Part shown: positions 2,047 through 27,395 of the stretch, piece by piece
How positions within the stretch are numbered: position 1 is the stretch's first letter
How the letters are laid out: each line of letters starts with the position of its first letter
From: Carnobacterium sp. CP1
GTDB taxonomy: Bacteria; Bacillota; Bacilli; Lactobacillales; Carnobacteriaceae
DNA: 64,000 nt
Direction of reading: 5' to 3'
Assembly: GCF_001483965.1 (NCBI RefSeq)
Contig: NZ_CP010796.1
Location: 806,001-870,000 of the forward strand
Made by a program: the position numbers and the translations under genes
The notes under the pieces: model-generated
What the model was told of the DNA's origin: nothing
Database searches by the model: none
Seen by the model: the letters and a program-made list of their open reading frames with translations, nothing else

Positions 2047-3907
2047 ATCGAGTAGGAGGAGCCTTACGGCTCCGACCTCTCACACCACCGTACGTACCGT
2101 TCGGTATACGGCGGTTCAATAACTTAAGTATCTCTGCTGGAAAAGTTGGTTTAGGTCTTTTAGACCCCAATTTACTAGCTTTTTCTTCGTAATCGCTCGG
2201 TGAAGTGTGTGGGTACGGGTCATACGCCAATACCCTTTTCTCGTATTAGCCACCTTCCATGCTTCTTCTTTCTCTATTCCATACTTTCTTAACATACGAA
2301 ATTTAGTCGATACTTTGTTCCATCGTTTCCAACATAGTTGTCTCAATCGATGATTTAGCCAATGAGCTACGCTCTTGATAAAGCTTTTCATATCTCCAAT
2401 TCCATAATAATTAATCCAGCCTTGTGTATAGAGGTTAATTTCTTTTATAATTTGTTTGAATGTACCAGGACGTTTTCGGCTCGTTAGTTTTCTCAGTCGG
2501 TTACGGAACTTGAGTTTAGCCGCCTTAGATGGGCGGCTTCTGACTTTCCCTGTGTTTTCCAGATAGTGAAACCTAGAAACTTAGCTTTAGCTGGAGTAGT
2601 CACTTTACTTTTTTCCGTATTAATCTCCAACCGGAGGTTTCCCTCTATAAAGGTCGTCACGCTTTTTAAAACTCGTTCTCCTGCTCTAGGTGTTTTCACA
2701 TAGATACAAAAGTCGTCCGCATAACGTACAAACCGGTGTCCTCGCTTCTCTAATTCTCTATCTAGTTGATTTAAATAGACATTAGCGAGTAGTGGAGAGA
2801 TAACTCCACCTTGAGGGGTTCCTTTATAATTCTCAATAAAGACATTGCCGTCCATAATTCCAGCTTTAAGAAAATTCCATATTAACCGCAACACTATTTT
2901 ATCTTGGATATAGTAGTTGAGGTAATTCATCAACTTCTGATGATGAACTGTATCAAAATAGTTACGCAAATCACAGTCGACAATCGTTTTGTATCCTTCG
3001 GATACATATTGTTCTGCCTGTTTAATCGCTTGATGAGCGTTCCTGCCTTTCCTAAAACCATAACTGTATGTCGAAAAGGAAGGGTCAATGATGGGTTCAA
3101 TCACTTGTAGAATAGCTTGTTGCACCACTCGATCTCGCACCACAGGAATTCCCAAGTTTCTTATACCACCGTTATCCTTAGGGATAGAAACCAGCTTAAC
3201 AGGTTGTGGTTGGTAAGTTCCTGCTCTCATCTTCTCTATCATTTGCTGACCATATTTTATTAAGTGAGCGTCCAATTCATGAACGGTCACTCCATCGATA
3301 CCGGCAGCTCCTTTATTTTGATACACTTTCTTGCTGGCTAACTTTAAATTATCTGAATTAGCGATTTGATTGATTAATGAGATACTATCTTGTTTCATCA
3401 TATCGTTACTGTAGCTCTCTACACTCTCTTGTACTCTTTCGTTTCCAACTTATCCCTCCAAGAGTAGCCATCTTTCGGTCTATACCACGATGTTTTCTGT
3501 AGTCGTGAGCTACATCCACCTCCTTGTTTATTCCAAGATTATTATTGTTCTGCCCTTCAGAGAACTGTGTTCTCCTACTATGGCGTCTGCTGACTTCTCA
3601 CTATTCGTTGTTACTACGGTATTTACCGCTAGTGAGACCTCCCCGGGTAAGAGTTATAACCTTCCACTCATGTCACTGCCTCATTTACTGTAGGAGACTC
3701 GTGCAGTATCGGACTTCGCTTTGTTTGGCAAGCTCGTCCATCTCCATCCAGCCTTGTATGAGATTTCTGTTCGTCAGGGCGAGTGTTTGCGTCCAGCTTC
3801 CTTCGGATTCTTTCTCGCGAAAGACACCCTTGCTATTCGCTAACAGTTCCTACTGCCAAGCCTGTAGTGGACTTTCACCACCAAGTTATCACCCATGCCG
3901 GGCGCAC
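2047..3907 (-). mobile_element. Group II intron, bacterial class C-like, inserted behind a terminator
   Basis: On the minus strand the element begins GTGCGCCCGGCATGGGTG at 3907, the usual GUGCG 5' end and domain I start. It contains a reverse transcriptase/maturase ORF and ends with a recognisable domain V hairpin (about 2115-2084, arms ACCGCCGTA and TACGGTGGT) and domain VI hairpin (about 2080-2051), with a 3' end near 2047 in CTACTCGAT. The 5' end lies one base after the T-run of a factor-independent terminator, the target preferred by class C introns. The encoded protein has no endonuclease domain, which fits that class. The exact 3' boundary is uncertain by a base or two. Confidence 0.9.
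2116..3401 (-). pseudogene. ltrA: Group II intron reverse transcriptase/maturase, frameshifted
   Basis: The first 302 codons (3401 to 2493) hold the RT palm and fingers: KNKGAAGIDG-like N-terminus, IPKDNGGIRNLGIP, GTPQGGVISPLL and the catalytic YADD at residues 227-230. The frame then ends early. Translation in the next frame continues the normal protein through the maturase domain X (RNRLRKLTSRKRPGT, GWINYYGIGDMKSF) to a stop at 2116. The switch is at the three-A run at 2545-2547 (minus strand GGGAAAGTC); one extra A would restore a 428-residue protein. No HNH endonuclease follows. The damage may be real or a sequencing error, but as read the protein loses domain X and should not splice or move the intron by itself. 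Confidence 0.85.
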
Positions 3908-3961: not shown

Positions 3962-5170
3962 TTAGTTTTCTTGGTACACTTTCATGGCAGCTAGGACACC
4001 TTCGCCTTTATTGATTTGCGCACCATTGACAAGCAGCGAAGCTTCTAACGCAGCTAAGGTCAATAAAACATTCTCTTTGCGGCTGCTGTAGCCCATATTC
4101 CCAATGCGCCATGCTTTACCTGCTAAGGAACCAAAGGAACCTGCTATCTCAACCCCAAAGTTAGATAATAAAGTAGAACGCAGCGCAGCTTCGTCGACTC
4201 CTTCAGGTACTTCTATACAAGTGACTGTTGGCAATTTCGTTGCGGGATCTCCAAAAATAGACAATCCCATCGCTTTCAATCCAGTAACCATCGCTTGTTC
4301 GTTTAATTTATGACGCGCATAACGGTCCGTTAGCCCTTCTGCTTGTACAAGGCGTAAACCTTCATGAATAGCATAAATCATAGAAGTAGCTTCTGTATGG
4401 TGATTGATTCCTTCTGCGCTCCAATAGCGTTGGATTTGGCTTAAATCCAAGTAATTGCTTTTGATAAAACGTTTATTGCGTACTTTTGGATCTAAACCTA
4501 GTTCTTTTTGGTAACGAGAAGTCAAGATCTTTTCAACACGCTCGTTGTAAGTGATCGTTGACATGCCTGATGGAACGCTTAACCCTTTTTGCGTACCGCC
4601 GACAGCAATATCAATGCCCCATTCATCGACTTTAACAGGAGTACTGGCAAATGTTGCGACCGCATCGACAATAAACAAAACATCGTTTTCTTGGCAATAG
4701 CGTCCAATTTCTTTTAATTCCTGCATCTGACCAGTTGATGTTTCGCCATGCACCATTGCTAAAACTTTAGGTTGATATTCTTTAATAGCAGCAATAACTT
4801 CTGAGGGTTCAAACGTTCCGCCCCATTCTTTTTCAATCATTTTAATATCGGCTCCAGCACGTTCAGCGAGCTCTGCCCATAAATAAGCAAATCGTCCAAA
4901 CGCGGGAATCAATACGCGGTCTCTTTCTTCAATCAAACCCAGCATAGCAGCTTCTAACCCTGAACGTGATGTACCATCAATCGCAAAAGTATGGGTGTTT
5001 TTGGTTTCAAATGGAATTTTCAATAATTCCGATACTTCTCCCATTAGGCCTCTGAATACAGGATCGTACTGTCCTAAAATAGGCATACTCATAGCTCGCA
5101 GAACTCGAGGATCTACTTCAACAGGGCCCGGGGTCATAATAATTCTATTTGGAATTGAAACTTCTTTCAT
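3962..5170 (-). CDS. pucG: PucG-type aminotransferase ((S)-ureidoglycine/alanine--glyoxylate aminotransferase, class V)
   Basis: PLP-dependent class V aminotransferase of 402 residues. The N-terminal MTPGPVEVDP and the PLP lysine in GGTQKGLSVPSG (Lys195) are typical of the alanine-glyoxylate aminotransferase family. In Bacillus, PucG moves the amino group of (S)-ureidoglycine to glyoxylate, giving oxalurate and glycine; the allantoin genes around it make that the best assignment. Serine- or alanine-glyoxylate aminotransferase activity cannot be excluded. AAGGAG precedes the ATG. It is divergent from the pucR-like regulator, with about 200 bases between, and ends at a strong terminator. Confidence 0.9.
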   Translation of the reverse strand: MKEVSIPNRIIMTPGPVEVDPRVLRAMSMPILGQYDPVFRGLMGEVSELLKIPFETKNTHTFAIDGTSRSGLEAAMLGLIEERDRVLIPAFGRFAYLWAELAERAGADIKMIEKEWGGTFEPSEVIAAIKEYQPKVLAMVHGETSTGQMQELKEIGRYCQENDVLFIVDAVATFASTPVKVDEWGIDIAVGGTQKGLSVPSGMSTITYNERVEKILTSRYQKELGLDPKVRNKRFIKSNYLDLSQIQRYWSAEGINHHTEATSMIYAIHEGLRLVQAEGLTDRYARHKLNEQAMVTGLKAMGLSIFGDPATKLPTVTCIEVPEGVDEAALRSTLLSNFGVEIAGSFGSLAGKAWRIGNMGYSSRKENVLLTLAALEASLLVNGAQINKGEGVLAAMKVYQEN

Positions 5171-7076: not shown

Positions 7077-8018
7077 TTATTTTGCTACGATTCTAGTTCC
7101 TGAAGTTCCTGCAAGAGCATCAACAGCGTTCTCTAATGAACAGATGATTGCTTCTTTTCCTTGAGCGGCAAAGGCAATCGCTGCTTCCATTTTAGGTCCC
7201 ATACTTCCGGCTGCAAAATGACCTTCCGTAACGTATTGGTTCGCTTCATCTAAAGTAACTGTTTCTAGTTTCTTTTGATCTGGTTTACCATAATTCAAGT
7301 AAACGTTGCTGACGTCAGTTAAAATCATAAAGACATCTGCATCTACTTGCTCAGCTAAGCGTAATCCAGACAAATCTTTATCGATCACTGCTTCAATTCC
7401 TTTTAACAGACCTTTTTCATCTGCTACAACCGGAATTCCGCCTCCACCAGTCGAAATGACAACGGTGTCGTTTTCTAACAACGCTTTGATTGAACTAACG
7501 CCATGGATTTTTTGTGGTTGTGGTGAAGCTACAACACGACGGTAACCGCGTCCTGCATCTTCAGCCATATTCCAGCCTTTTTCTTGTTCCAATTGTTTAG
7601 CTTCTTCTTCTGTGTAGAAAACCCCGATCGGTTTTGTCGGATTGTTAAATGCTGTATCGTTTGCATCTACTTCTGTCTCAGTTAAAAGAGTGATGACATT
7701 CCCTGAAATTTCTTTTTCAGTTAAAGCATTTTTAAGTGATTGTTCCATCATATAACCAATAAACCCTTGAGATTGTGCGCTTAATGCATCTAATGGCAAT
7801 TGAGGAACAACGTCTTTGGCTTCTTCGTTTTGACGGAGAATATTCCCGACTTGCGGACCGTTCCCGTGTGTAATGATAACTTGGTGTCCAGCTTTTTTCA
7901 CATTAGAAATTGAATCTGTACTGATTTCTACGTTTTTTAATTGATTTTCAAAAGTTGCTTCTTGGTTAGGACGTAAAATTGCATTTCCTCCAAGAGCAAT
8001 AACGACTCTTTTTCCCAT
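7077..8018 (-). CDS. allK: Carbamate kinase part, possible independent internal start
   Basis: Alternative product inside the fusion frame. ATG at 8018-8016 preceded by AAAGGAG gives a full-length 313-residue carbamate kinase. It differs clearly from the arcC kinase at 22620-23561 (for example [17 protein letters not shown] versus [18 protein letters not shown]). In this setting it would use the carbamoyl phosphate released from oxalurate. Whether this start is used in addition to the fusion start cannot be told from sequence. Confidence 0.5.
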   Translation of the reverse strand: MGKRVVIALGGNAILRPNQEATFENQLKNVEISTDSISNVKKAGHQVIITHGNGPQVGNILRQNEEAKDVVPQLPLDALSAQSQGFIGYMMEQSLKNALTEKEISGNVITLLTETEVDANDTAFNNPTKPIGVFYTEEEAKQLEQEKGWNMAEDAGRGYRRVVASPQPQKIHGVSSIKALLENDTVVISTGGGGIPVVADEKGLLKGIEAVIDKDLSGLRLAEQVDADVFMILTDVSNVYLNYGKPDQKKLETVTLDEANQYVTEGHFAAGSMGPKMEAAIAFAAQGKEAIICSLENAVDALAGTSGTRIVAK

Positions 8019-8879
8019 AAGTGTGTTTCTCTCCTTTTCTAACACCAGTAACCCTAATAGGATACCGGTCATTGTATCTAATCCAGATGTACTGCCATTT
8101 GTTAATAGTTGATGGAAATCGGTTTTTATGCGGTTTCCTTGGTATTCTTCGCTGGTTTCTTTCAAAAAAGATAGAATCGTTGTGCTATACAAATGGTTAA
8201 CTGCATACCGAAGATAGGTTTCTGCAACAGCCGTTGTACGCGTTGTTGTTTCAAGTAATTCTACTAATAGCAGACGAACATTCTGATCTAATAATCCGTA
8301 AGCCGAATCAACACTTAGCAACCCTACCAGAAGATCATCACCTGAAGGCGTTAACCCTTTGCCGCGTCCAATAAAAAACAGCAGCGCTTCACGGATGTTC
8401 TCTTCTTTTTCTGAAATAAGACCCTTAACAGCTTGGGAAAATGAAGTGTCCATTTGTTCTAAATAAGCAAGGGAGAAAGGCAGTTTTTCGCCGAAGCCAT
8501 TGCGGTCTTGAACCATCTTGGCCTCATTCAGTACTTTTGTTATCTGTTTCCAATTCACTGGTTTTTGTTGCAGTAAATGTGAGTTATAGTGACTTGCATA
8601 ATCAAAAGATAGAATAAACTGGTTGTTTTGCAATCGTTTGGAATGCGAATCATACGTGAATGGATCCCCAATGTTAACTTTTTTTAGTACCTCTTTCGTG
8701 TCTTTAAACGAAAGATGCACTGCAAACGGCAATTCACCATTTTTGTCTGTTCCAATAAACAATAATTCTTTTCCACTAATGAGATTCAAACCATTTTTAA
8801 AAATACTATGGACTTTCCAGCGATGATGTTCCATTAATTTCATTTCTAACTGTTCTGAAATTTTTTGCACATAAATCAC
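7077..8879 (-). CDS. Fusion of oxamate carbamoyltransferase subunit AllH (DUF2877) and carbamate kinase AllK
   Basis: One 600-codon frame carries two enzymes. Residues 1-287 are a DUF2877 protein (GKGLTPSGDDLLVGLL near 170-190), the family of E. coli YlbF/AllH, a subunit of oxamate carbamoyltransferase. Residues 288-600 are a complete carbamate kinase starting [17 protein letters not shown], with [10 protein letters not shown] and the usual 313-residue length; this converts carbamoyl phosphate and ADP to ATP, ammonia and CO2. The kinase Met codon is at 8018-8016 and has AAAGGAG 12 bases upstream, so it may also be made separately by internal initiation. No stop separates the parts. The first start is GTG (8879) after GGAG. 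In E. coli the two are separate genes (allH, allK). Confidence 0.85.
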   Translation of the reverse strand: MIYVQKISEQLEMKLMEHHRWKVHSIFKNGLNLISGKELLFIGTDKNGELPFAVHLSFKDTKEVLKKVNIGDPFTYDSHSKRLQNNQFILSFDYASHYNSHLLQQKPVNWKQITKVLNEAKMVQDRNGFGEKLPFSLAYLEQMDTSFSQAVKGLISEKEENIREALLFFIGRGKGLTPSGDDLLVGLLSVDSAYGLLDQNVRLLLVELLETTTRTTAVAETYLRYAVNHLYSTTILSFLKETSEEYQGNRIKTDFHQLLTNGSTSGLDTMTGILLGLLVLEKERNTLMGKRVVIALGGNAILRPNQEATFENQLKNVEISTDSISNVKKAGHQVIITHGNGPQVGNILRQNEEAKDVVPQLPLDALSAQSQGFIGYMMEQSLKNALTEKEISGNVITLLTETEVDANDTAFNNPTKPIGVFYTEEEAKQLEQEKGWNMAEDAGRGYRRVVASPQPQKIHGVSSIKALLENDTVVISTGGGGIPVVADEKGLLKGIEAVIDKDLSGLRLAEQVDADVFMILTDVSNVYLNYGKPDQKKLETVTLDEANQYVTEGHFAAGSMGPKMEAAIAFAAQGKEAIICSLENAVDALAGTSGTRIVAK

Positions 8880-8963: not shown

Positions 8964-10226
8964 TTAAATATCCATACCTAATTTTTTAGCATAAGCTGTA
9001 ATGGCTTTTTCGAAACATTCGATTGGAGGTGTAACCGTTCCTGCTCCAATTTGTCCAAGTCCAGCTACTTTATGAGCGATCCCTGTATTGATAACCGGTA
9101 AAATACCTGTTTCAACAACTTTTCGCGCATCGATTCCTAAAACGATTCCTTGGAAATCCCATGTTGGAACTGGGAAGTTCGGGTTGTGATCAATAGTGAT
9201 CTCAGTCATTTCATTACTCGTTTTTAAAGCGTCGTTGAATCCGCCAGTACCTACGAAACGGGTAACAGCAGGTGCTGCGATCATCGCCATACCGCCTACA
9301 CCAAAGGTTTCAGTAATCGCACTGTCTCCAAGGTCCGGGTTAGCATCATCAGCTGTATAACCAGAGAAGTACAACCCTTGTGGTGTATTAACAGGACCAG
9401 TAAACCATTCGTCGCCCATTCCGCTGATCTTAATACCGAAATTTTCTCCGTTACGAGCCATAGCTGTAACAACTGTTCCAGATTCAATCATACGTGCTCC
9501 ATCCATAACTGCTTTTGCTGCAGCCATCATTGGGTTTAAGAAGAATTGGTCCGTGTCAGCTAAGAACGTGATAACTTCTTGACGTTCTTTTTCGTCGATA
9601 TCCAATTGAGTAACAATTGGAGCTACTTCTTTTAAGAAGTTTAATGAGGCAGCGATATTTCGTTGGTGGAACTCGTCTCCCATCGCAATTGATTTAGCAA
9701 TAATAACGTTTAAGTTCATGCCTTCTTCCATCGTTTTCAACACTTTGCTTAAGACTGGGCCTAAAACATCGCGCATCCAGCGTAAACGGTTCACAACGTC
9801 TTCGCCATAAGCTCCAAAACGTAAAACGGCTCCAATACCTTCATTCATTTGACAATAAGCAATGTTTCCATCCGTACGGTTTTCTACTACTAAAACCGGC
9901 ATATTTCCAGATGTGATTCCGCCCATTGGTCCAACTGCATTAACAGAGTGACAAGGGATGAATTTTACTTCACCGCTTGCTAACAACGTTCTTGCATCTT
10001 CTTCTGTTGCAGCCCACTCTTCAAAAAGAACAGCTCCTACACATGAGCCTTGCATCGGATCCGTCATGTTTTCCCATTTGATAGGAGGTCCTGCATGCAG
10101 CAAGACCTTTTCATTCAATTCTTCGATTACCGATTTTGCGGGTACAACATCCAATAAAAATGGTGCTCCGGCAACGATTTTATCGATTACTGCACGGTTT
10201 GCTTCGTCAATTGTTTTATAAGTCAT
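8964..10226 (-). CDS. allG: Oxamate carbamoyltransferase subunit AllG (DUF1116, YlbE-like)
   Basis: DUF1116 protein of about 420 residues, the family of E. coli YlbE, renamed AllG as a subunit of oxamate carbamoyltransferase (AllFGH), which splits oxalurate into oxamate and carbamoyl phosphate. Typical stretches are VPAKSVIEEL, HAGPPIKWENM and GPMGGITSGNMPV. An upstream TTG at 10286 would add 20 residues, but the ATG at 10226 has AGGAGG 11 bases upstream and gives MTYKTIDEANR, so I use it. It follows allF by 49 bases and is followed by a hairpin before allH-allK. All three transferase subunits are therefore in line, as in E. coli. Confidence 0.88.
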   Translation of the reverse strand: MTYKTIDEANRAVIDKIVAGAPFLLDVVPAKSVIEELNEKVLLHAGPPIKWENMTDPMQGSCVGAVLFEEWAATEEDARTLLASGEVKFIPCHSVNAVGPMGGITSGNMPVLVVENRTDGNIAYCQMNEGIGAVLRFGAYGEDVVNRLRWMRDVLGPVLSKVLKTMEEGMNLNVIIAKSIAMGDEFHQRNIAASLNFLKEVAPIVTQLDIDEKERQEVITFLADTDQFFLNPMMAAAKAVMDGARMIESGTVVTAMARNGENFGIKISGMGDEWFTGPVNTPQGLYFSGYTADDANPDLGDSAITETFGVGGMAMIAAPAVTRFVGTGGFNDALKTSNEMTEITIDHNPNFPVPTWDFQGIVLGIDARKVVETGILPVINTGIAHKVAGLGQIGAGTVTPPIECFEKAITAYAKKLGMDI

Positions 10227-10275
10227 AGTCAATAAACCCTCCTGTATTTTCTGAAACTCATTTGTTTGTTCGTTT

Positions 10276-12033
10276 TTATTTTGCAACGTAACTATTTAAG
10301 AAGTATAAAACTTTTTGTAACGTTACGTCTCCGCCTGCGCTTGGTCTCCAATCGAATTGAACAGATTTGCCGTTGTTTTCTTCAATCGCTTCAGCAAAAC
10401 TCTTCAAACCAACGTTGATAACAAATGGTTTTTGGCTTAATAAAGCTAATGTTGCTTCTGATGGCGCAGAAACTTCGACAGCTGCCTCGTTAGCAATTTC
10501 TTTGACTTCTTTTGGTTCATCTTTGATGGTGTGACCCAAAATAGCTAAAGCTGTCCGAACGGCTTTATTATTGCTTTCGCACACGATTACGCCGGCTTCT
10601 TCAAGAATTTGTTTTTGTCGTGCAAAGTTTTGCGGGTCTGCTGATGTTCCAACAACCGTTCCTAAAACGACCAATTCGCGACCGTCTTTTTGAGCTGCTG
10701 CTTTCGCTTCTTTGATAGCTGGAGCTAATTCAGTTGCCATATCGTCATGCGCACCGTAACCTAAAACAACATCTAATAAAATAATCGCTGTTTCTGGGTT
10801 ATCGCCAGCTTTTTTGATCATTTCAATCCGTTTTTCAGGATCGATCATTGGGTGTGGTTTACCTTGAGTGTACATATCATCGCCTAAGTCGATGATTTCA
10901 TGTCCCGCAGAGTTTAAAATAAACCCTTCTTCGTGTGTTAAACCTTCAGCTAAATTTAAGCCATCAGCAATCAGCATACCTGCTTCATTTGCTAATGTTC
11001 CGCCTGAGTAATACCCTTTGATCAATGTTTGTTCTGGTTTCAATGATACCGCTGGTTTTTCAACAGTCTCATTTAATGCCTTGACTTCTTCGCCATTTAA
11101 AAGTGCTACGGCGATTTTAGCTGCTTCTTCCAAAGTATATGCATGATACAGATCTTTCTCGTTGAATGTTGGTTTTTCACCTAAGAAAATCGTTACTGCC
11201 GGTTTAGAAATCGTTCTCAATAAACCAAGGACTTTGTCTCTGACAGATTTTGCAGGTGGTTTAGAAATAACCACGATCACATCCGTATCTGGGTCTTTCT
11301 CTAAGGCAACGATACTATCCAACATAGTGATACCGCCGACTTCTTCAGACAAATCACGTCCTCCGGTACCAATTGCATTAGTTACACCTGCTCCTAATTT
11401 ATCAATAATTGTTGAAACTTCTTGGATACCTGTGCCTGAAGCTCCAATGATGCTGATTCTTCCTGGACGAACGATATTCGTAAAGGCCATCGGTACACCA
11501 TTGATAATACCTGTCCCACAGTCTGGTCCCATAACTAACAAGCCTTTTTCATGTGCTTTTTTCTTTAAGCGAACTTCGTCTTCGATTGCTACGTTATCAC
11601 TAAAGATAAAGGGATGTAGCCCCTCGTCTAGTGCCTTCTCTGCTTCTAAAGCAGCATACGTTCCTGGTACAGAAATCAACGCTACGTTAGCATCTTTGCC
11701 TAGTTTTAAAGCAGTGTCCCACGTACGAGCTGTTTCTTCTGTATCGCCTTCATCTGCTGCTCCTTGTGAAGCTAGAAATTCATCGATTTCAGCTAAAATA
11801 GTGTCGATAACTTCATCGTTATCTGTATCTACTACTAGAGCCATATCGTTTGCTGAAGCTTTTTCAAGTTCAGGTGTTCGTAGTCCGCTGCCTTCGAAAA
11901 GGTCTTTGTTAGCTGGCGTTCCCATCATGATGGAAACCCGGTTAACTCCTTCGATCGTGTTGAGTTTGTTGGTCAAAAGCATTAAGACAACTGAGTCTTG
12001 ATACGCATTTTCTTTAATTATTGTGTGTAACAT
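10276..12033 (-). CDS. allF: Oxamate carbamoyltransferase subunit AllF (FdrA family)
   Basis: 585-residue FdrA-family protein, related to the succinyl-CoA synthetase alpha subunit. Visible are an N-terminal domain (RVSIMMGTPANKDLF), a Rossmann-like CoA-binding-type domain (IIGASGTGIQEVSTII, about 200-215) and a ligase-type C-terminal domain (LDVVLGYGAHDD). In E. coli FdrA is AllF, part of oxamate carbamoyltransferase. A TTG start at 12048 is possible, but the ATG at 12033 follows GGGGAA with 5 bases spacing and begins MLHTIIKENAY, as in homologues. It is the first gene of the allF-allG stretch, about 160 bases downstream of allD. Confidence 0.88.
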   Translation of the reverse strand: MLHTIIKENAYQDSVVLMLLTNKLNTIEGVNRVSIMMGTPANKDLFEGSGLRTPELEKASANDMALVVDTDNDEVIDTILAEIDEFLASQGAADEGDTEETARTWDTALKLGKDANVALISVPGTYAALEAEKALDEGLHPFIFSDNVAIEDEVRLKKKAHEKGLLVMGPDCGTGIINGVPMAFTNIVRPGRISIIGASGTGIQEVSTIIDKLGAGVTNAIGTGGRDLSEEVGGITMLDSIVALEKDPDTDVIVVISKPPAKSVRDKVLGLLRTISKPAVTIFLGEKPTFNEKDLYHAYTLEEAAKIAVALLNGEEVKALNETVEKPAVSLKPEQTLIKGYYSGGTLANEAGMLIADGLNLAEGLTHEEGFILNSAGHEIIDLGDDMYTQGKPHPMIDPEKRIEMIKKAGDNPETAIILLDVVLGYGAHDDMATELAPAIKEAKAAAQKDGRELVVLGTVVGTSADPQNFARQKQILEEAGVIVCESNNKAVRTALAILGHTIKDEPKEVKEIANEAAVEVSAPSEATLALLSQKPFVINVGLKSFAEAIEENNGKSVQFDWRPSAGGDVTLQKVLYFLNSYVAK

Positions 12034-12121
12034 TAAAATTCCCCGCAATCTCTTTGATTTTTTTTATTCCTAAGTTTATAAAACTCATTTAGTGCTCTTA
12101 ATTAAAGGTATTTCTTTTTAT

Positions 12122-12194: not shown

Positions 12195-13265
12195 CTATTT
12201 TTCGCCAAATGCATCGGCTTTATCGTAATTGTCAAAATGGATCGTATCGCTTTGAAGGTAATCGTAAATTTCTTTTACGATTGGAATGCCGTCTTCTTCA
12301 TATTTTTTAGCAACGATATTCGACAATTCTCCTGGATAAAGAACTTGGTCAAAACCTTTAGCCGGTTTAACTGCATGCAGCTCGTCCACCATCTTATTGA
12401 TGTTTTCTTTGAATTCCGTTAAATCAGTGAAGTAACTAGGATTGATCAGAATATGCAATTGTCCTAAATTACGACCAGCAGTGATATCCGTATACATAGA
12501 GGAAACGTGTTTCCCAAATGGCAATCCTAACAACATGCCGGATAAAATATCAACCATCATCATCAAGCCATAACCTTTTGGCCCGGCAATCGGCAACAAT
12601 GCTTTAACGTTATGCGGATCTGTTGTTGGCTCTCCATTTTCATCTACTGCCCAATTAGCTGGGATATCGACGTTACGTGACCGAGCGTCTAAGATTTTGC
12701 CCCAAGCTTGAACCGTTGTTGCCATATCAAAAACCACTGGGCTATGTCCTGCTCTTGGAGCAGCAAATGCAATAGGATTTGTTCCATAATAAGGTTCTGA
12801 TCCGCCAAACGGCACAACCATTGGATCTGATTGACAAACAGATAACGCTATCAAATCTTGTGCAGCTGCTTGTTCTACAAAATACGCCAATGCGCCGCTG
12901 TGGCCCATTTGGTGAACACCAACCACTCCGATTCCAGTTTCTTTAGCTAATTTCATGCCTTCTTTTAAAGCTTCATTTGCAGCCACATGACCTACACCAT
13001 TATCTGCTTCAAACACACCAGTACTTGGACCCGTTTGATTGAATTTGAAATTCGGGTTGGTATTGCTGCCACCTTTTGAAATTCGTTCAGCATAATAATC
13101 TACGCGGACTGCTCCATGGGAATGAATCCCATGAGCGTCTGCAAAGACTAACGTATCTGCAACTCCTGAAGCATGCTCTTTAGAAAGACCTGCTTTTTCA
13201 AGTTTAGCTTGAATCAATTGATGCAATTCTTCTTCTGTTACTTTGACCATTTCTAACTCAGTCAT
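12195..13265 (-). CDS. allD: Ureidoglycolate dehydrogenase (Ldh2 family)
   Basis: 356-residue member of the malate/L-lactate dehydrogenase-2 family of NAD(P)-dependent 2-hydroxyacid dehydrogenases. The family stretches HGAVRVDYYAERI, GVVGVHQMGHSGALAYF (around the catalytic His) and GPKGYGLMMMVDIL are present. In an allantoin island this is AllD, which oxidises ureidoglycolate to oxalurate and makes NADH. The ATG follows GCAGG by about 8 bases. It lies 20 bases behind allE on the same strand, so product and consumer are adjacent. Malate or lactate dehydrogenase would be the call without the context. Confidence 0.9.
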   Translation of the reverse strand: MTELEMVKVTEEELHQLIQAKLEKAGLSKEHASGVADTLVFADAHGIHSHGAVRVDYYAERISKGGSNTNPNFKFNQTGPSTGVFEADNGVGHVAANEALKEGMKLAKETGIGVVGVHQMGHSGALAYFVEQAAAQDLIALSVCQSDPMVVPFGGSEPYYGTNPIAFAAPRAGHSPVVFDMATTVQAWGKILDARSRNVDIPANWAVDENGEPTTDPHNVKALLPIAGPKGYGLMMMVDILSGMLLGLPFGKHVSSMYTDITAGRNLGQLHILINPSYFTDLTEFKENINKMVDELHAVKPAKGFDQVLYPGELSNIVAKKYEEDGIPIVKEIYDYLQSDTIHFDNYDKADAFGEK

Positions 13266-15418: not shown

Positions 15419-16651
15419 CTATTCAACGTATGCTAATTCATATAGAGCTGCTGCTAAAGTTTTGATGCCTTCTACTAAATCTTCATTCTTAGTATCTTCA
15501 GCAGGATTGTGACTGATTCCATTAATACTCGGAACGAATAACATAGCTGTTGGGATATAAGGTGCAATGATTTGTGAATCGTGTCCAGCACCACTGTGCA
15601 TCATGCGATAATTAATATTATTTTTTTCAGATGCTTCTTTCAAAGCAGTTACTATTTTTTCATCCATAGGTACTGGCGGCTCATTCATCCATAAGTCAAT
15701 AGAAATTTCCATCCCCATATCTGCAGCAATTTTTTTCATATCTTCTTCGATTTCATGTGTAAATTGATTTAATTCCTCTTGATCTGTATGGCGGCAATCC
15801 ATTGTAAACAAAACTTCTCCTGGAACAACGTTTACCGTATTTGGTTTAGGTTCTACTTTTCCAAACGTCAAAACAAGCGGTTCGCCTATCTTTTCAGCTT
15901 TTCCAATAGATTGTGTCACAATTTTACTAAAGGCATACACAGCATCTTTTCTTAATTTCATTGGTGTTGTTCCTGCATGGTTAGCTTGACCTTTTAATAC
16001 GATCGTATATCGTTTTTGACCTACAATACTGGTTACGACACCAACTGATTTCTTTTCTGTTTCAAGGACGTTTCCTTGTTCAATATGAATCTCTACAAAA
16101 GCTTTTAAATCTTCACGAATTTTCTCATCTTCTTTTCTGAAGTCAAAACCAGCTTTGCGCATTGCATCTACAAATTTAACACCATCGAAATCAGCAATAT
16201 CTTCTAGATCTTCTTTCTTAGCTTCTAATACTAAGTTTTTACTGCCCCAGAATGCATAAGGAAAACGGCTACCTTCTTCTTCGGCCATGGAAATAACTTC
16301 TAAGTTACGTAATGGCTGTCCATACTTTTCTTGCAACATCTTTGCAGCCATATATGAAGCTAACACGCCATATTGTCCGTCTAATTTACCGCCATTAACA
16401 ACTGTATCTATATGTGAGCCTGTTAGAATCGTTTCATTTGGATATTTCGACCCTTCCAAACGTCCAAATAAGTTCCCTATGGCATCAAAATGCGTTTTCA
16501 TTCCAATTTCTTCAAATTTATTTTTGACGCTATTTTGAGCTTCTACCCAAGAATCAGAATACAATAACCTAGTCGTTCCTCCTGTTGGATCTGCCCCAAT
16601 ACTTGAAAGCCATTTCACATTATTCGCTACTTCTTGATCAAAATTCATCAT
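15419..16651 (-). CDS. allC: Allantoate amidohydrolase (M20 family)
   Basis: About 410 residues, M20/amidohydrolase of the hydantoinase/carbamoylase branch. Metal ligands are visible in GSHIDTVVNGGKLDGQYG, MAEEEGSRFP and FVEIHIEQG, plus the C-terminal HSGAGHDSQ. It hydrolyses allantoate to (S)-ureidoglycine, ammonia and CO2 with manganese. N-carbamoyl-amino-acid hydrolase is the nearest alternative; the position argues for AllC. Two ATGs compete: that at 16657 touches its AAAGGG site, while the one at 16651 is spaced six bases, so I prefer the latter. The gene is divergent from the alpha/beta hydrolase. Confidence 0.92.
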   Translation of the reverse strand: MMNFDQEVANNVKWLSSIGADPTGGTTRLLYSDSWVEAQNSVKNKFEEIGMKTHFDAIGNLFGRLEGSKYPNETILTGSHIDTVVNGGKLDGQYGVLASYMAAKMLQEKYGQPLRNLEVISMAEEEGSRFPYAFWGSKNLVLEAKKEDLEDIADFDGVKFVDAMRKAGFDFRKEDEKIREDLKAFVEIHIEQGNVLETEKKSVGVVTSIVGQKRYTIVLKGQANHAGTTPMKLRKDAVYAFSKIVTQSIGKAEKIGEPLVLTFGKVEPKPNTVNVVPGEVLFTMDCRHTDQEELNQFTHEIEEDMKKIAADMGMEISIDLWMNEPPVPMDEKIVTALKEASEKNNINYRMMHSGAGHDSQIIAPYIPTAMLFVPSINGISHNPAEDTKNEDLVEGIKTLAAALYELAYVE

Positions 16652-16689
16652 TGCCATCCCTTTCTCTTTTAAAGTCTAACTTTTATTTA

Positions 16690-22619: not shown

Positions 22620-23561
22620 TTATTTGGTTATAATTGTACCGCCTTGTCCAGTTAAAACTTGTTCAATATTTTCTAGTGACGTGATCATCGCTTTGCCTTC
22701 AGGGTGGTTTTCAACAAAAGCAATCGCGGCTTCAACTTTTGGCAACATACTGCCAGGCGCAAATTGGTTATCCTTAATGTACTGCTTCATTTCTGACACT
22801 GTAACTTTTTCTAGTTTCTTTTGATCAGGCTCGTTGTAGTTCACGTAAACATTGTCGACCCCAGTTAAAATAATCAGCAGATCCGCTTTAACCAATTCAG
22901 CTAGTTTTTGTGAAGCAAAATCTTTATCTATTACGGCTTCAACACCGATTAACTGTCCATCTTTTTCAATCACCGGTATTCCTCCGCCGCCAACAGAAAT
23001 AGTCACTACACCATTTTCGACTAATTGATTGACAGCACGATATTCTTTGATGCTAACAGGTTTCGGCGAAGGAACGACTTTTCGCCAGCCGCGGCCTGCA
23101 TCTTCTTTAAATAAAGAGCCAGTAGCTGTCATTGCTTGCTGAGCATCTGTCTCATTCAAAAAAGGGCCAATGGGTTTTGTCGGTTTTTCAAAAGCTGAAT
23201 CGGCTTCATCAACCACTACTTGCGTTACAATAGAAACAACCGATTTAGACAGATTTCTTTTTTCCAAAGCGTTTCCCAATGCATTCTGCATCCAAAAGCC
23301 AATGCTCCCTTGAGTCATTGCTACACAGGTATCCAATGGCATTGCTGGGGTTTTTTCACTATCGGCCGCAGCTTGTTGCAGCACTAAATTGCCGACTTGC
23401 GGACCATTCCCATGTGAGATAATCAAATCATCGCCATTTTCAATAAATTTGACTAAATATTCTGCTGTACGGGCTAATGCTGCTTGTTGAGCTGCGGCAC
23501 TAGCGTCGTCAGATAATATCGCATTACCGCCTAAAGCTATTACAATTTTTTGTTTTGTCAT
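22620..23561 (-). CDS. arcC: Carbamate kinase of the arginine deiminase pathway
   Basis: 313 residues. [22 protein letters not shown] and the amino-acid-kinase C-terminal region ([11 protein letters not shown]) identify the enzyme that makes ATP from carbamoyl phosphate and ADP. It is the last gene of arcA-arcB-arcD-arcC, 19 bases after arcD. The ATG follows AGGGGA. The window carries a second, fused kinase in the allantoin island, so two systems feed the same reaction. Confidence 0.95.
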
Positions 23562-23580: not shown

Positions 23581-25008
23581 TTACATATTGCCAATATCAA
23601 TTGAACCATTAAAAATTTGAATTAAAGCTACTCCAAATAAAACAATTATCGCCGCTGCAGCAATTAGTTCGTTTTTCGTAAAAATTTTCCGATTATTCTC
23701 TTTTTGAGCCCAAGCAAAGATAAAAATTCCTGGAGCGTAAAGCAGCATAGTGATCAATAGATAATTAATTCCTCCGGCATAAATCAACCATAAAGAAAAA
23801 ATACTTCCAAAAAATCCGATCATTATATTTCTAGTACGGTTAGGAGTAGTTTTAGATTCCGATAATGATAATTTTAGCTGATAAAATGCTGTAAAGGCAT
23901 AAGGAATTAAAATAGCCGATGAAGCTAAAGAAAAAGCAAAATTATAAGCTCGTTCACTGATTAGAAATGTAAATAAAAACAATTGAACAATAATATTGGT
24001 AAAAATAAGCGAATTGACCGGCGCATCATTTTTATTTTTCTTAGTAAAAAACTTCGGAAACGATCCTTCTCTGGCAGCTTGATAAGGCAGTTCAGCCGTT
24101 AACATGGTCCAAGCCAGCCAAGCACCAGCGACGGAAATGATCACTCCTATATTAATCAAAATAGCACCCCAGTGTCCAACAACACTTTCTAAAAGAGAAG
24201 CCATTGCGGGTTGATTTAGCTCAGCCAGTTCAGGACGAGAAAGGACACCCATTGATAAAATAGTTGTCAATAAATAAATACTGATCACAGTAGCTAACCC
24301 TAAAATAGTAGCTTTTCCAACGTCTGATTTTTTCGCAGCACGCCCAGAAAAAACTACGGCTCCTTCGATCCCGATAAATACCCATACTGTTACCAGCATA
24401 GTCCCTCTGACTTGGTCCATCACTTCTCCAAAACTAAAACTGCCATTTTGTGTTCCCCAAAAATCAGCGGTAAAAACATCTAGCCTAAATGCAATAAACA
24501 TCGTTACAAGGAATATAGCTAATGGAATCAATTTAGCAAATGTAACGATCGTATTGATAAACGAAGCTGTCTGAATTCCTTTTAAAATCAATCCATGCAC
24601 AAGCCAAAGCATAATAGACGCTCCGATAACCGAAGCCAGGTTCTGACCATTCCCAAACAAAGGGAAGAAATATCCTATCGAACTGAACATCAACGTTCCG
24701 TAAGCTACATTTCCTAAAAATGCAGACAGCCAATACCCCCAGGCAGAGTTAAAGCCCATATAATCGCCAAAACCTGCTCGTGCATAACTGTAAATGCCGG
24801 CTTCTAGATCTGGCCGTTTGGCAGATAAGTTTTGAAAGCTGAACGCCAATAACCCCATTCCTACACCTGTAACTAACCAGCCAATGATTACCGGCCCGGG
24901 GGATGCTGTTAGTGCCATATCGGACATTAAATTAAAAATTCCGCCACCAATAATTGATCCCACGACTAAACTCATCAATGGGATCAATCCTAATTTTTTT
25001 TCATTCAT
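23581..25008 (-). CDS. arcD: Arginine:ornithine antiporter
   Basis: 475-residue APC-superfamily carrier with about 12-13 membrane segments. The first segment has the family motif VVGSIIGGGIFNLMSDMA, and TM6 shows VFIGIEGAVVFSGRA. It swaps external arginine for ornithine and so needs no energy. Its position between arcB and arcC supports the assignment. About 90 bases with a hairpin separate it from arcB. Confidence 0.93.
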   Translation of the reverse strand: MNEKKLGLIPLMSLVVGSIIGGGIFNLMSDMALTASPGPVIIGWLVTGVGMGLLAFSFQNLSAKRPDLEAGIYSYARAGFGDYMGFNSAWGYWLSAFLGNVAYGTLMFSSIGYFFPLFGNGQNLASVIGASIMLWLVHGLILKGIQTASFINTIVTFAKLIPLAIFLVTMFIAFRLDVFTADFWGTQNGSFSFGEVMDQVRGTMLVTVWVFIGIEGAVVFSGRAAKKSDVGKATILGLATVISIYLLTTILSMGVLSRPELAELNQPAMASLLESVVGHWGAILINIGVIISVAGAWLAWTMLTAELPYQAAREGSFPKFFTKKNKNDAPVNSLIFTNIIVQLFLFTFLISERAYNFAFSLASSAILIPYAFTAFYQLKLSLSESKTTPNRTRNIMIGFFGSIFSLWLIYAGGINYLLITMLLYAPGIFIFAWAQKENNRKIFTKNELIAAAAIIVLFGVALIQIFNGSIDIGNM

Positions 25009-25044
25009 TTTATTTGCCCCATTCCCATACTGTATTTGTTAAGA

Positions 25045-25085
25045 CAGCATCAGAGCATCAGGGAACCAAAACTCCTCATGCTCGT
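25045..25085 (-). promoter_or_regulatory. Hairpin between arcB and arcD
   Basis: GAGCAT and ATGCTC flank an inner AGGGA/TCCT pairing in the 94-base arcB-arcD gap. It has no clear T-run, so an RNA processing or stability element is more likely than a full terminator. Confidence 0.4.
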
Positions 25086-25102
25086 AACCTATTGGGTCAA
25101 AG

Positions 25103-26119
25103 CTAGACTTTAGGAATGAATAAGTTGCCTAGAGTAGCAGCCATGATCGCTTTGATCGAGTGCATTCTATTCTCTGCTTGGACGAATTGACGCGCATGCG
25201 GGCTTCTGAAAGCTTCATCCGTGATTTCCATCGCTGTGATGTGATGATCTTTTTCCACTTGTTTTCCATAATCGGTTTCGACATCATGGAAAGCCGGTAA
25301 ACAGTGTAAAATAATTACATCTTCTTTACCCGTGGCGCGTACCATTTCCATATTGATTTGATAAGGCGTCAATAATTCGATACGTTCTGCAAATTTGTCT
25401 TCTTCGCCCATTGAAACCCATACGTCGGTATACAATACATCCGCGTTCTTAACTCCTTTAGCGACTTCATCGGTAATCATCACTTCGCTACCGGCTTCTT
25501 CGGCATACTCTTGTGCCATGTCAATTAAATGTTGTTCAGGGAATAGAGATTTAGGAGAAACAATCCGTATGTTTACACCTAGAATCGCTGCTGTGACCAA
25601 TAAACTATTGGCGACATTATTACGTCCATCTCCGACATACGCTAAAGTGATCCCTTCTAAACGGCCAAAGTTTTCTTTAACAGTTAAAAAATCAGCAATC
25701 ATTTGAGTTGGATGCCATTCATCGGTTAAACCGTTCCAAACCGGCACACCTGAAAATTCAGCTAATTGTTCTACAGAGCGTTGACTGAATCCTCTAAACT
25801 CTATTCCATCAAACATACTGCCTAATACACGAGCCGTATCTTCAACCGATTCTTTTTTGCCCAGTTGGATATCGTCTTTGCCTAAATATTCAGGGTGGGC
25901 ACCTAAATCAATGGCAGCTGTTGTGAAAGCAGCTCGTGTTCGAGTAGAAGCCTTTTCAAATAATAAAGCTATATTTTTCCCCTCTAAATAATGATGAGGA
26001 ATACCTTTTTTCTTCAATAATTTTAAATGTTCTGAGAACTCGATTAAATACACTAACTCTTCTTTAGTAAAGTCCTTTTCAGCTAAGAAGCTGCGCCCTT
26101 GAAATACTTGTTTACTCAT
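25103..26119 (-). CDS. arcB: Ornithine carbamoyltransferase, catabolic
   Basis: 338 residues. The carbamoyl-phosphate motif STRTR (58-62), HPTQ ([11 protein letters not shown]) and HCLPAFHD are all present. In the arginine deiminase pathway it runs toward ornithine and carbamoyl phosphate from citrulline and phosphate. The ATG follows AGGAGG. It is 37 bases after arcA in the same operon. Confidence 0.97.
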
Positions 26120-26156
26120 CTTTATTCCTCCTAGTTTTTTTATCCTATCTCTCTTT

Positions 26157-27395
26157 TTAGCGTTTTATGTCTTCACGAACTAACGGCATGCTCATACAGC
26201 GAGGACCGCCACGACCTCTAGAAAGTTCACTCGAGGCAATTTCAATTACTTTAATTCCATGTTGCCGTAATAGTTCATTCGATACATAATTTCGGTCATA
26301 GGTAACTACTACTCCTGGAGCGATAGCCAATGTATTCGAGCCATCATTCCATTGCTCACGAGGGGCTGCAATGGCATCGCCTCCGCCACAAGGAATCAAA
26401 TCTAATTTTTCTACACCAAGCGCTTCGCGTAAAACCTCTTGCAAATCTTTGCGGTGAGTAATTTTAAGCTTGCCGGATTCCTCACCTTGTTCAAGGATAT
26501 ACGTATCTACTTCTCCGCCATTTTTTTGAATACCAGGATGTATTGTAAATTTATCATAATCTACCATCGTGAAGACGGTATCCAAATGCATCATAGCCCG
26601 CACGTTAGGAATCTTAATAGCCAATATTCTTTCGAAATTTGAATGGCGATCAAACAATTCATGAGCTAGCTTTTCAATTGCTTTAGCTGAAGTTCGTTGC
26701 GAGATACCTAAAGCCAATACTTTATCATTCAGTACCAGTTCATCTCCGCCTTCAATATGAGAAGTGTGATTCCGATCTCGCCAAATTTCGACTCCTTGGT
26801 CAGCAAAACGTGGATGGTGCTTCATTATCGTTTCAATAAACATCGACTCGCGATTACGGGCTTCATAAGTCATATGGTTAACCGTCACTCCATTACCTAA
26901 TGAAGCAGCCGGATCTCTAGTGAAATAAAGGTTTGGCATTGGATCCATATAAAAAGGATAGTCTTCTCCATTGGAAGCTGTCGTTAAATCATTTGACGGA
27001 ATAGCGATATCTTTTTTACGAACGCCTGCCATTATAGTATCTACCATTTCCTGTGTTTCAAATTTCATTAGATGATCTTTTAATGCACTCATAACCGCTT
27101 CTGATTCAATATTTGATTCAGCTAACATACGGTCAATAAACTCTTCCTTGATATTTCCCGCATCAATAGCTTCCGCCGATAATTTTTCTAAATACAATAC
27201 TTCCACACCATTATCTTCTAATGTTTTAGCAAAAGCATCGTGTTCTTTTTGAATAACTGGCAAATGAGGGATATCATCAAACAATAAACGTTCCATAATA
27301 GCGGGTGTTAAATTTTCAACTTCTTTTCCTGGCCTTTTCAATAAAACAGTTTTTAACGGTCCAATCTCTGACATAACATGAATCGGTTTATTCAT
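26157..27395 (-). CDS. arcA: Arginine deiminase
   Basis: 412 residues. Typical motifs are [21 protein letters not shown] and the C-terminal [12 protein letters not shown] with the nucleophilic cysteine at about residue 400. It converts arginine to citrulline and ammonia, the first step of the operon, giving acid resistance and ATP. The ATG follows GAGGAGG. Upstream is a 540-base regulatory region before the Crp/Fnr regulator gene. Confidence 0.98.

What the first reader, a model, noticed from the sequence alone, without database searches (positions are those of the whole stretch)
7077..8879. In-frame fusion of oxamate carbamoyltransferase subunit AllH with carbamate kinase
A DUF2877 domain (287 aa) runs without a stop into a full carbamate kinase (313 aa). 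The kinase Met codon still has an AAAGGAG 12 bases upstream, as if a stop codon between two genes had been lost. Joining the enzyme that releases carbamoyl phosphate with the one that uses it could channel this unstable intermediate. The E. coli functions (AllFGH transferase, AllK kinase) come from established work on those genes.
Basis: partly seen in the sequence, partly recalled or inferred. Interest (0 to 1): 0.65.

Follow-up and report, generated by a model that had tools for sequence, protein, structure and literature searches.

The report
AllH–carbamate kinase fused enzyme gene
In a Carnobacterium-type bacterium, two neighbouring genes that take apart the purine waste product allantoin have merged into one reading frame; the same merger appears to have happened separately in Listeria and in an Enterococcus, which hints that the two enzymes work best side by side.

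Summary
Window 7077-8879 (-) is one 600-codon frame: AllH (residues 1-287, one of three oxamate carbamoyltransferase subunits) runs straight into a complete carbamate kinase, AllK (288-600). It lies in an allantoin operon (allC, transporter, allE, allD, allF, allG, allHK). In relatives of the same genus, allH and allK are separate and overlap by TAATG. The junction is also fused in all 9 genomes examined of one Listeriaceae genus and in Enterococcus alcedinis. A tree of 91 AllH-AllK pairs needs three changes of state. The kinase keeps its own ribosome-binding site in every fusion seen, and in fused Listeria synonymous change nearly stops there. My reading is therefore a dual-output gene that makes a tethered AllH-AllK plus free AllK. 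A full-length model (pLDDT 93) puts the kinase directly after AllH's last helix. Carbamoyl-phosphate channelling is plausible but untested; neutral loss of a stop is a serious rival, and a base error in this one genome is unlikely but not excluded. In a neighbouring family the other two subunits, AllF and AllG, are fused (23 of the 27 genomes that have AllG). This is a new variant of known parts and supports the kinase belonging with the carbamoyltransferase.

The parts
7077..8879 (-). allHK fused open reading frame, 600 aa
8019..8879 (-). AllH part, residues 1-287 (Pfam AllH domain at 8049-8375)
   Evidence: alignments A2 and A4; predicted alone with pLDDT 94.1
8064..8096 (-). C-terminal AllH motif G262-x-x-S265-G266-x-D268-x-x-x-G272, 16 to 26 residues before the kinase Met
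   Evidence: G262, S265, G266, D268 and G272 invariant in 52 of 52 AllH sequences aligned, fused and unfused, E. coli included
8031..8038 (-). Internal ribosome-binding site AAAAGGAG of the kinase, 12 bases before the ATG
   Evidence: anti-SD duplex -9.3 kcal/mol, in the range of likely true starts in this window
8016..8018 (-). Internal ATG, start of the kinase (residue 288)
7077..8018 (-). Carbamate kinase (AllK) part, residues 288-600
   Evidence: solved carbamate kinases by sequence and by fold
8964..10232 (-). allG; start most likely 10226 (ATG) or 10232 (TTG), not the listed 10286
   Evidence: PF06545; ribosome-binding sites; solved relative 3clq
10276..12048 (-). allF (fdrA); start probably 12033
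   Evidence: (PRK06091, 737.1 bits)
12195..13265 (-). allD, ureidoglycolate dehydrogenase (makes oxalurate)
   Evidence: TIGR03175
13286..14089 (-). allE, (S)-ureidoglycine aminohydrolase
   Evidence: TIGR03214
14147..15406 (-). Major facilitator transporter, substrate not known
15419..16657 (-). allC, allantoate deiminase
   Evidence: TIGR03176
5369..7015 (+). PucR-type purine-catabolism regulator, convergent with allHK
   Evidence: PF07905, PF13556
688..2040 (+). allB, allantoinase
   Evidence: PRK08044

Best explanation
allHK is a real fused gene with two products. Ribosomes that start at allH read on into the kinase and make a 66-kDa AllH-AllK; ribosomes that start at the internal site make a free 33.5-kDa AllK. 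AllH-AllK takes AllH's place in the AllF-AllG-AllH oxamate carbamoyltransferase. It thereby ties the enzyme that releases carbamoyl phosphate from oxalurate to the kinase that uses it to make ATP. Shown here: the fused frame, intact domains, recurrence in three lineages, the kept internal start, and constraint on that start in Listeria. Inferred: that both proteins are made, that the fusion assembles with AllF and AllG, and that nearness helps carbamoyl-phosphate transfer or fixes the enzyme ratio.
For: Fused frame with both domains over curated cut-offs. Of 92 distinct AllH-AllK pairs, 9 are one open frame through the junction to the kinase end (window, 7 Listeria, E. alcedinis) and 2 more Listeria are fused at the junction. 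All 9 genomes examined of Listeriaceae genus g35 have the fused junction. The tree needs 3 changes and starred branches force 3. All 92 pairs keep an SD-like tetramer within 20 bases of the kinase ATG. In 7 fused Listeria, identical-residue codons -10 to -1 differ synonymously in 3% of comparisons, against 7-38% in the other 33 windows; in a sliding scan 5 of 335 windows are as low, all starting at codons -18 to -7. Unfused Enterococcus, where allK needs its own start, also show a low value there, 10%. The window's internal SD scores -9.3 kcal/mol; of 121 other internal in-frame ATGs 3 score as strongly, one of them the likely true allG start. AllH loses nothing in the fusion: its tail after the last invariant Gly is 10, 13 or 15 residues in the 8 fusions where it can be measured up to the kinase Met, and 5-25 in 77 of 79 other AllH rows. 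The model joins AllH helix 265-287 to kinase strand 291-296. An active E. coli preparation carried a C-terminal tag on AllH (PMC11326118, abstract and section 7). AllF and AllG, subunits of the same enzyme, are fused in 23 of 27 AllG-bearing genomes of family f4.
Against: No protein, transcript or activity data. In-frame neighbours separated by a stop are common (24 of 92), so fusion is one mutation away and may be neutral. The fused state is absent in most carriers: 1 of the 4 Carnobacterium-genus genomes with the pair, 1 of 8 own-family genomes matched at E <= 1e-120, and no stop-free full-length row in the 36 matched of 105 Enterococcaceae genomes (E. alcedinis came from another collection). 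Three of the 9 Listeria genomes have a broken frame in AllH or AllK. In Sporosarcina, an unfused control, the codons just after the allK start show no such dip (32%). In E. coli, deleting allK had little effect (PMC9843812, passages), and AllH tagged alone did not hold AllF and AllG. The window's internal SD spacing of 12 is long. The constraint test is on Listeria, not on the window's lineage, where a hidden stop by base error is not excluded.
Confidence: 0.6

Rival explanations
1. Neutral stop loss. allH and allK lie so close that an indel or a stop mutation now and then joins them. AllH tolerates a C-terminal extension, the internal start keeps making free kinase, and the fusion has no benefit of its own.
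For: 24 of 92 pairs are already in frame with a stop between; E. aquimarinus and E. alcedinis differ at the junction by little more than the stop. The internal site is kept in every fusion. A C-terminal tag on AllH is tolerated in E. coli. Junction codons in Listeria are limited by the ribosome-binding site itself, so persistence of the open frame is weak evidence.
Against: The Listeria fusion has lasted through a genus whose AllH parts are mostly 56-63% identical to that of L. booriae (L. riparia 93%). Three origins, all at AllH-AllK, and a widespread AllF-AllG fusion in the same operon, look less like accident.
Confidence: 0.33
2. Sequencing or assembly artefact in this genome: a real stop was hidden by a misread base near the end of allH.
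For: Only one genome of this species could be read. One surplus base at any of 15 positions (-37 to -23), or any of 10 substitutions, would hide a normal AllH stop. A related, separate allH-like gene about 13 kb away has a frame break near its 3' end, so frame errors or decay exist in this genome.
Against: Independent fused junctions in 9 Listeria genomes and E. alcedinis. The 15-base stretch has no homopolymer longer than three, and an error in the AAAA run would not give a normal end. Neighbouring operon genes are intact.
Confidence: 0.06
3. Only the fusion is made: the internal start is a dead relic and all kinase is tethered.
For: In the window lineage the spacing is long (12 bases) and the TAATG coupling seen in relatives is gone.
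Against: Internal SD as strong as at likely true starts; synonymous constraint at the same place in fused Listeria; the unfused Carnobacterium relative L005 uses the same 12-base spacing.
Confidence: 0.1

Closest known systems
allFGHK operon of Escherichia coli K-12 (fdrA-ylbE-ylbF-ybcF)
   Same: Same four functions in the same order; AllF-AllG-AllH shown to be oxamic transcarbamylase, AllK shown to be catabolic carbamate kinase (PMC11326118, abstract and sections 7 and 10 read; PMC9843812, passages read).
   Different: In E. coli allH and allK overlap by 4 bases and are annotated as two proteins; here they are one frame.
Fused allHK of Listeria (g35 genus: L. booriae, grandensis, portnoyi, newyorkensis, rustica and others) and Enterococcus alcedinis, found here
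   Same: Same domain order; allF and allG directly upstream in the two read (L025, L033); same kept internal ribosome-binding site.
   Different: Separate origin on the tree; AllH only 27-33% identical to the window's.
AllF-AllG fused proteins of family f4, found here
   Same: Neighbouring genes of the same operon joined in one frame.
   Different: Joins two transferase subunits, not a subunit with the next enzyme.
Carbamoyl-phosphate channelling complexes (for example anabolic carbamate kinase with ornithine transcarbamylase in Pyrococcus furiosus)
   Same: A carbamate kinase working next to a transcarbamylase; carbamoyl phosphate half-life about 5 min at 37 C (PMC6022934, passages read).
   Different: Those are separate proteins, the flux runs the other way, and the transferase is of another family.
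Genes that make a long protein and, by internal in-frame initiation, its C-terminal part (Cas11b, SpaO short)
   Same: One frame, two products expected (search listing and start of abstract only: PMC11899642, PMC13059759).
   Different: There the short product is a part of one protein; here it would be a whole second enzyme.

Membership tests
Oxamate carbamoyltransferase subunit AllH (PF11392) | Profile match over the curated cut-off | tested here: met
   81.7 bits against 25
Oxamate carbamoyltransferase subunit AllH (PF11392) | Residues invariant in the family, E. coli AllH included | tested here: met
   17 columns invariant in 52 of 52 rows, the window among them
Oxamate carbamoyltransferase (AllFGH) | AllF and AllG encoded alongside | tested here: met
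   allG and allF directly upstream
Oxamate carbamoyltransferase (AllFGH) | Oxalurate + phosphate to oxamate + carbamoyl phosphate | not testable with these tools
   Needs an enzyme assay
Catabolic carbamate kinase (arcC/allK) | Equivalog profile over cut-off, full length | tested here: met
   TIGR00746 425.1 bits against 358.25, residues 290-598
Catabolic carbamate kinase (arcC/allK) | Carbamate-kinase fold | tested here: met
   Foldseek 1e19_A E 2.3e-39, TM 0.91 by target length; the first 15 rows are carbamate kinases, some titled otherwise
Catabolic carbamate kinase (arcC/allK) | Works as a homodimer and makes ATP | not testable with these tools
   Dimer state recalled from established work; no assay
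Substrate-channelling fusion | Transfer of carbamoyl phosphate without release | not testable with these tools
   Kinetics needed
Two-product gene with internal initiation | Ribosome-binding site and start codon inside the frame | tested here: met
   Present in the window and in the other fusions
Two-product gene with internal initiation | That site kept by selection | tested here: inconclusive
   Synonymous constraint shown in 7 fused Listeria; not testable in the window's lineage, one fused genome
Two-product gene with internal initiation | Short product seen in cells | not testable with these tools
   Needs proteomics

The most novel reading that the evidence does not exclude
The single gene builds a balanced metabolon. 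AllH-AllK sits in the carbamoyltransferase; because carbamate kinase is a dimer (recalled), the free AllK from the internal start pairs with the tethered one, so each transferase carries a complete kinase dimer without being cross-linked to its neighbours. Carbamoyl phosphate passes between them before it decays. Together with the AllF-AllG fusion of family f4 this would show that allFGHK encodes one physical complex.
Probability: 0.22. Interest if true: 0.68.

Novelty: new variant of a known kind. Interest (0 to 1): 0.46.

Why it matters
AllFGH was tied to its genes only in 2024, and the sections I read give no structure of the whole complex. Gene fusions are natural hints of physical contact. 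Repeated AllH-AllK fusion, with AllF-AllG fusion elsewhere, suggests which parts touch and that carbamate kinase is a working part of the transferase. It offers ready single-chain constructs for testing whether carbamoyl phosphate is channelled in a fermentative pathway.

Tried and rejected
Sequencing-error reading: judged unlikely, not excluded. I first held that no single indel could give a normal gene end; a systematic check showed that a surplus base at 15 positions could, so that argument was withdrawn and the odds of the artefact raised from 0.04 to 0.06. Unique-to-this-genome reading: rejected. A third kind of kinase fusion, suggested by a 649-codon frame around a kinase in G114: rejected, since AllH there is a separate 286-aa frame; that look led to the AllF-AllG fusion.

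Fold of AllH: no PDB match at E <= 0.001 by Foldseek, none by sequence at E <= 1 (one row, E 1.4); the second look by VIA-align gave at most Z 6.1 over 72 residues of the N-terminal beta part, with L,D-transpeptidases, which its own notes class as possibly a common arrangement. So no mechanism was borrowed from structure.

Use of junction persistence in Listeria as proof of selection for the fusion: rejected, because the ribosome-binding site constrains the same codons.

AllF-AllG fusion was not searched for in print.

Rows dropped before counts: 54 duplicate pairs by identical kinase segment; L010 from the tree for a short kinase; kinases without an AllH nearby were not counted as pairs. L030 counts as fused although its AllH front part is broken. 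The synonymous test used 7 of 9 distinct Listeria loci, leaving out L039 and L041 for their broken frame.

Full report
WHAT IS THERE. Window 7077-8879 on the - strand is a single 600-codon frame. Residues 1-287 are AllH (PF11392, 81.7 bits; cut-off 25) and residues 288-600 are a full carbamate kinase (TIGR00746 arcC, 425.1 bits; cut-off 358.25). The kinase Met is preceded by AAAAGGAG with 12 bases between GGAG and ATG. Expected sizes are 66.1 kDa for the fusion and 33.5 kDa for the kinase alone. Upstream on the same strand lie allG, allF, allD, allE, a transporter and allC; on the + strand lie allB and a PucR-type regulator. This is the oxamate branch of allantoin breakdown as worked out in E. 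coli (PMC11326118: abstract and sections 7 and 10 read; PMC9843812: passages read).

WHERE IT COMES FROM. The genus is most likely Carnobacterium: two contigs of a named Carnobacterium assembly (L067, L069) have the same lengths and matches as contigs of same-genus genome G004. Of the five genomes of the genus held, four have AllH next to AllK: the window's, fused, and three unfused in which AllH ends at a TAATG overlap with allK (G001, G002, G004). The fifth, G003, has no AllH beside its kinase. Between the window and L005 the distance from ribosome-binding site to ATG is the same (12), while AllH is net one base out of phase upstream of the site and the stop is gone (read).

COULD IT BE A MISREAD BASE. 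A wrong length of the AAAA run would not give a normal end: AllH would stop 50 or 79 bases inside the kinase gene. But one surplus base at any of the 15 positions -37 to -23 would hide a stop at -23, which would be ordinary: 75 of 83 pairs not scored as one frame end AllH within 25 bases of the kinase ATG. That stretch holds no run longer than GGG. Ten single substitutions would also do it. I had no second isolate. The fusion in other lineages makes the window's open junction credible, not certain.

IS IT ELSEWHERE. I collected 92 distinct AllH-AllK pairs after dropping 54 duplicates. Nine are one open frame through to the kinase end: the window, seven Listeria (one of them, L030, with a broken AllH front) and Enterococcus alcedinis. 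Two further Listeria (L039, L041) are fused at the junction but their frame breaks about 28 codons into the kinase. Twenty-four pairs are in frame with a stop between, and the rest are in another frame. In Listeriaceae (36 genomes searched), all 9 of genus g35 have the fused junction: six as complete fused frames, one with a broken AllH front, two with a broken kinase (the last three carry the same kinase segment as L030, L039 and L041). In the rows listed there was no stop-free fused frame among 105 Enterococcaceae genomes (36 matched), nor besides the window's among 18 of its own family (8 matched), 398 drawn from the class (17 matched) or 398 drawn from the phylum (152 matched, list cut). 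In the order sample of 395, six Listeriaceae genomes had the full fused frame besides the window, and a seventh a shorter one. E. coli K-12 has the two genes overlapping by 4 bases.

HOW OFTEN IT AROSE. On a 91-row tree the fused state needs three changes and the starred branches force three: the window, the Listeria group, E. alcedinis. Three gains is the simplest account; one gain with losses inside the Listeria-Carnobacteriaceae group plus another in Enterococcus needs more changes. The tree was a quick search with SH-aLRT support only, and has some long rows.

WHAT THE JUNCTION SAYS. AllH loses nothing by fusing: the tail after its last invariant glycine is 10 residues in six fused Listeria rows, 13 in E. 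alcedinis and 15 in the window, against 5-25 in 77 of 79 other AllH rows; L039 and L041 give 42 because their frame breaks later, and L030 could not be measured. The strictly kept motif GxxSGxDxxxG ends 16 residues before the kinase Met. The AlphaFold2 model (mean pLDDT 93.1, pTM 0.79) runs AllH helix 265-287 straight to kinase strand 291-296, with about 83 pLDDT over residues 281-290. The kinase half matches solved carbamate kinases. AllH alone folds confidently (pLDDT 94.1) but I found no convincing solved relative; AllG has one, 3clq.

TWO PRODUCTS. Every one of the 92 pairs has an SD-like tetramer within 20 bases of the kinase ATG. In the window the internal site binds the anti-SD at -9.3 kcal/mol, like the likely true starts around it; of 121 other internal in-frame ATGs three score as strongly, one of them the likely real allG start. 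In seven fused Listeria, synonymous differences fall to 3% in the ten codons before the internal Met, the lowest of 34 windows (the others 7-38%), and are 12% in the ten codons after it. In a sliding scan 5 of 335 windows are that low, all starting between codons -18 and -7, and the dip holds with five less similar rows and, at 5%, without the three SD codons. Controls: unfused Enterococcus show 10% both before and after the allK start; unfused Sporosarcina show 9% before it but 32% after it. So the site before the Met is constrained whether or not the genes are fused, which is what one expects if free kinase is still made in fused Listeria. For the window's own lineage this is by analogy.

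HOW IT PROBABLY WORKS. AllH-AllK replaces AllH in the AllF-AllG-AllH transferase, so that kinase rides on the enzyme that makes its substrate, while internal initiation adds free kinase. Carbamoyl phosphate is short-lived (about 5 min at 37 C; PMC6022934, passage), so nearness could help. The E. coli enzyme that was assayed carried a C-terminal tag on AllH, which makes a C-terminal fusion tolerable. Gene pairs with very short spacing are enriched for subunits of one complex (PMC10666635, passages), which fits the close allH-allK spacing. Against: AllH tagged alone did not hold AllF and AllG, and allK deletion had little effect in E. coli. The odds given to the best reading and to neutral stop loss overlap, since a neutral fusion could also make two products.

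A SECOND FUSION IN THE SAME OPERON. In family f4 of the same order, AllF and AllG form one frame of 1,004-1,048 codons in 23 of the 27 genomes with AllG, out of 76 searched (AllF and AllG both found in that frame in all 23; one read in full). Both are subunits of one enzyme. That neighbouring parts of this operon fuse in different pairs in different lineages is the best circumstantial support that AllK too belongs to the complex.

VERDICT. It is a new variant of known enzymes, convergent and probably two-product; channelling remains a hypothesis, neutral stop loss is not excluded, and in this one genome a base error is unlikely but open.

Noticed in passing
L183:574-3633 (-) (G114) and L191-L213: AllF and AllG, the other two transferase subunits, are fused in one frame of 1,004-1,048 codons in 23 of 27 AllG-bearing genomes of family f4. 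Three of these genomes (G388, G233, G312) also hold an AllG in a 438-codon frame of its own.
   Followed up: partly
G000:C1:799418-800302 (-), L180:7419-8303, about 6 kb left of the window start: A second, diverged AllH-like gene next to an amidohydrolase and transporters, with no AllK seen beside it; its 3' end appears frame-broken, since the last part of the domain matches in another frame.
   Followed up: partly
22620-23561 (-), with 23581-27395: A second, ordinary carbamate kinase in an arginine-deiminase cluster (arcC, antiporter, arcB, arcA judged by eye from sequence), so the cell does not depend on AllK alone for carbamate kinase.
   Followed up: partly
2116-3401 (-): Remains that look like a group II intron reverse transcriptase (judged by eye), cut into two frames, between allB and the aminotransferase gene.
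   Followed up: no
3962-5170 (-): Class V aminotransferase resembling glyoxylate aminotransferases, below those models' cut-offs, beside the allantoin genes; may serve the ureidoglycine branch.
   Followed up: no
L030, L039, L041: Three of nine fused Listeria loci have a broken frame in AllH (L030) or AllK (L039, L041); draft error or decay could not be told apart.
   Followed up: partly
L025:41-1894 (Listeria booriae): Two tandem Ldh_2-family dehydrogenase genes (allD-like) directly before allF.
   Followed up: no
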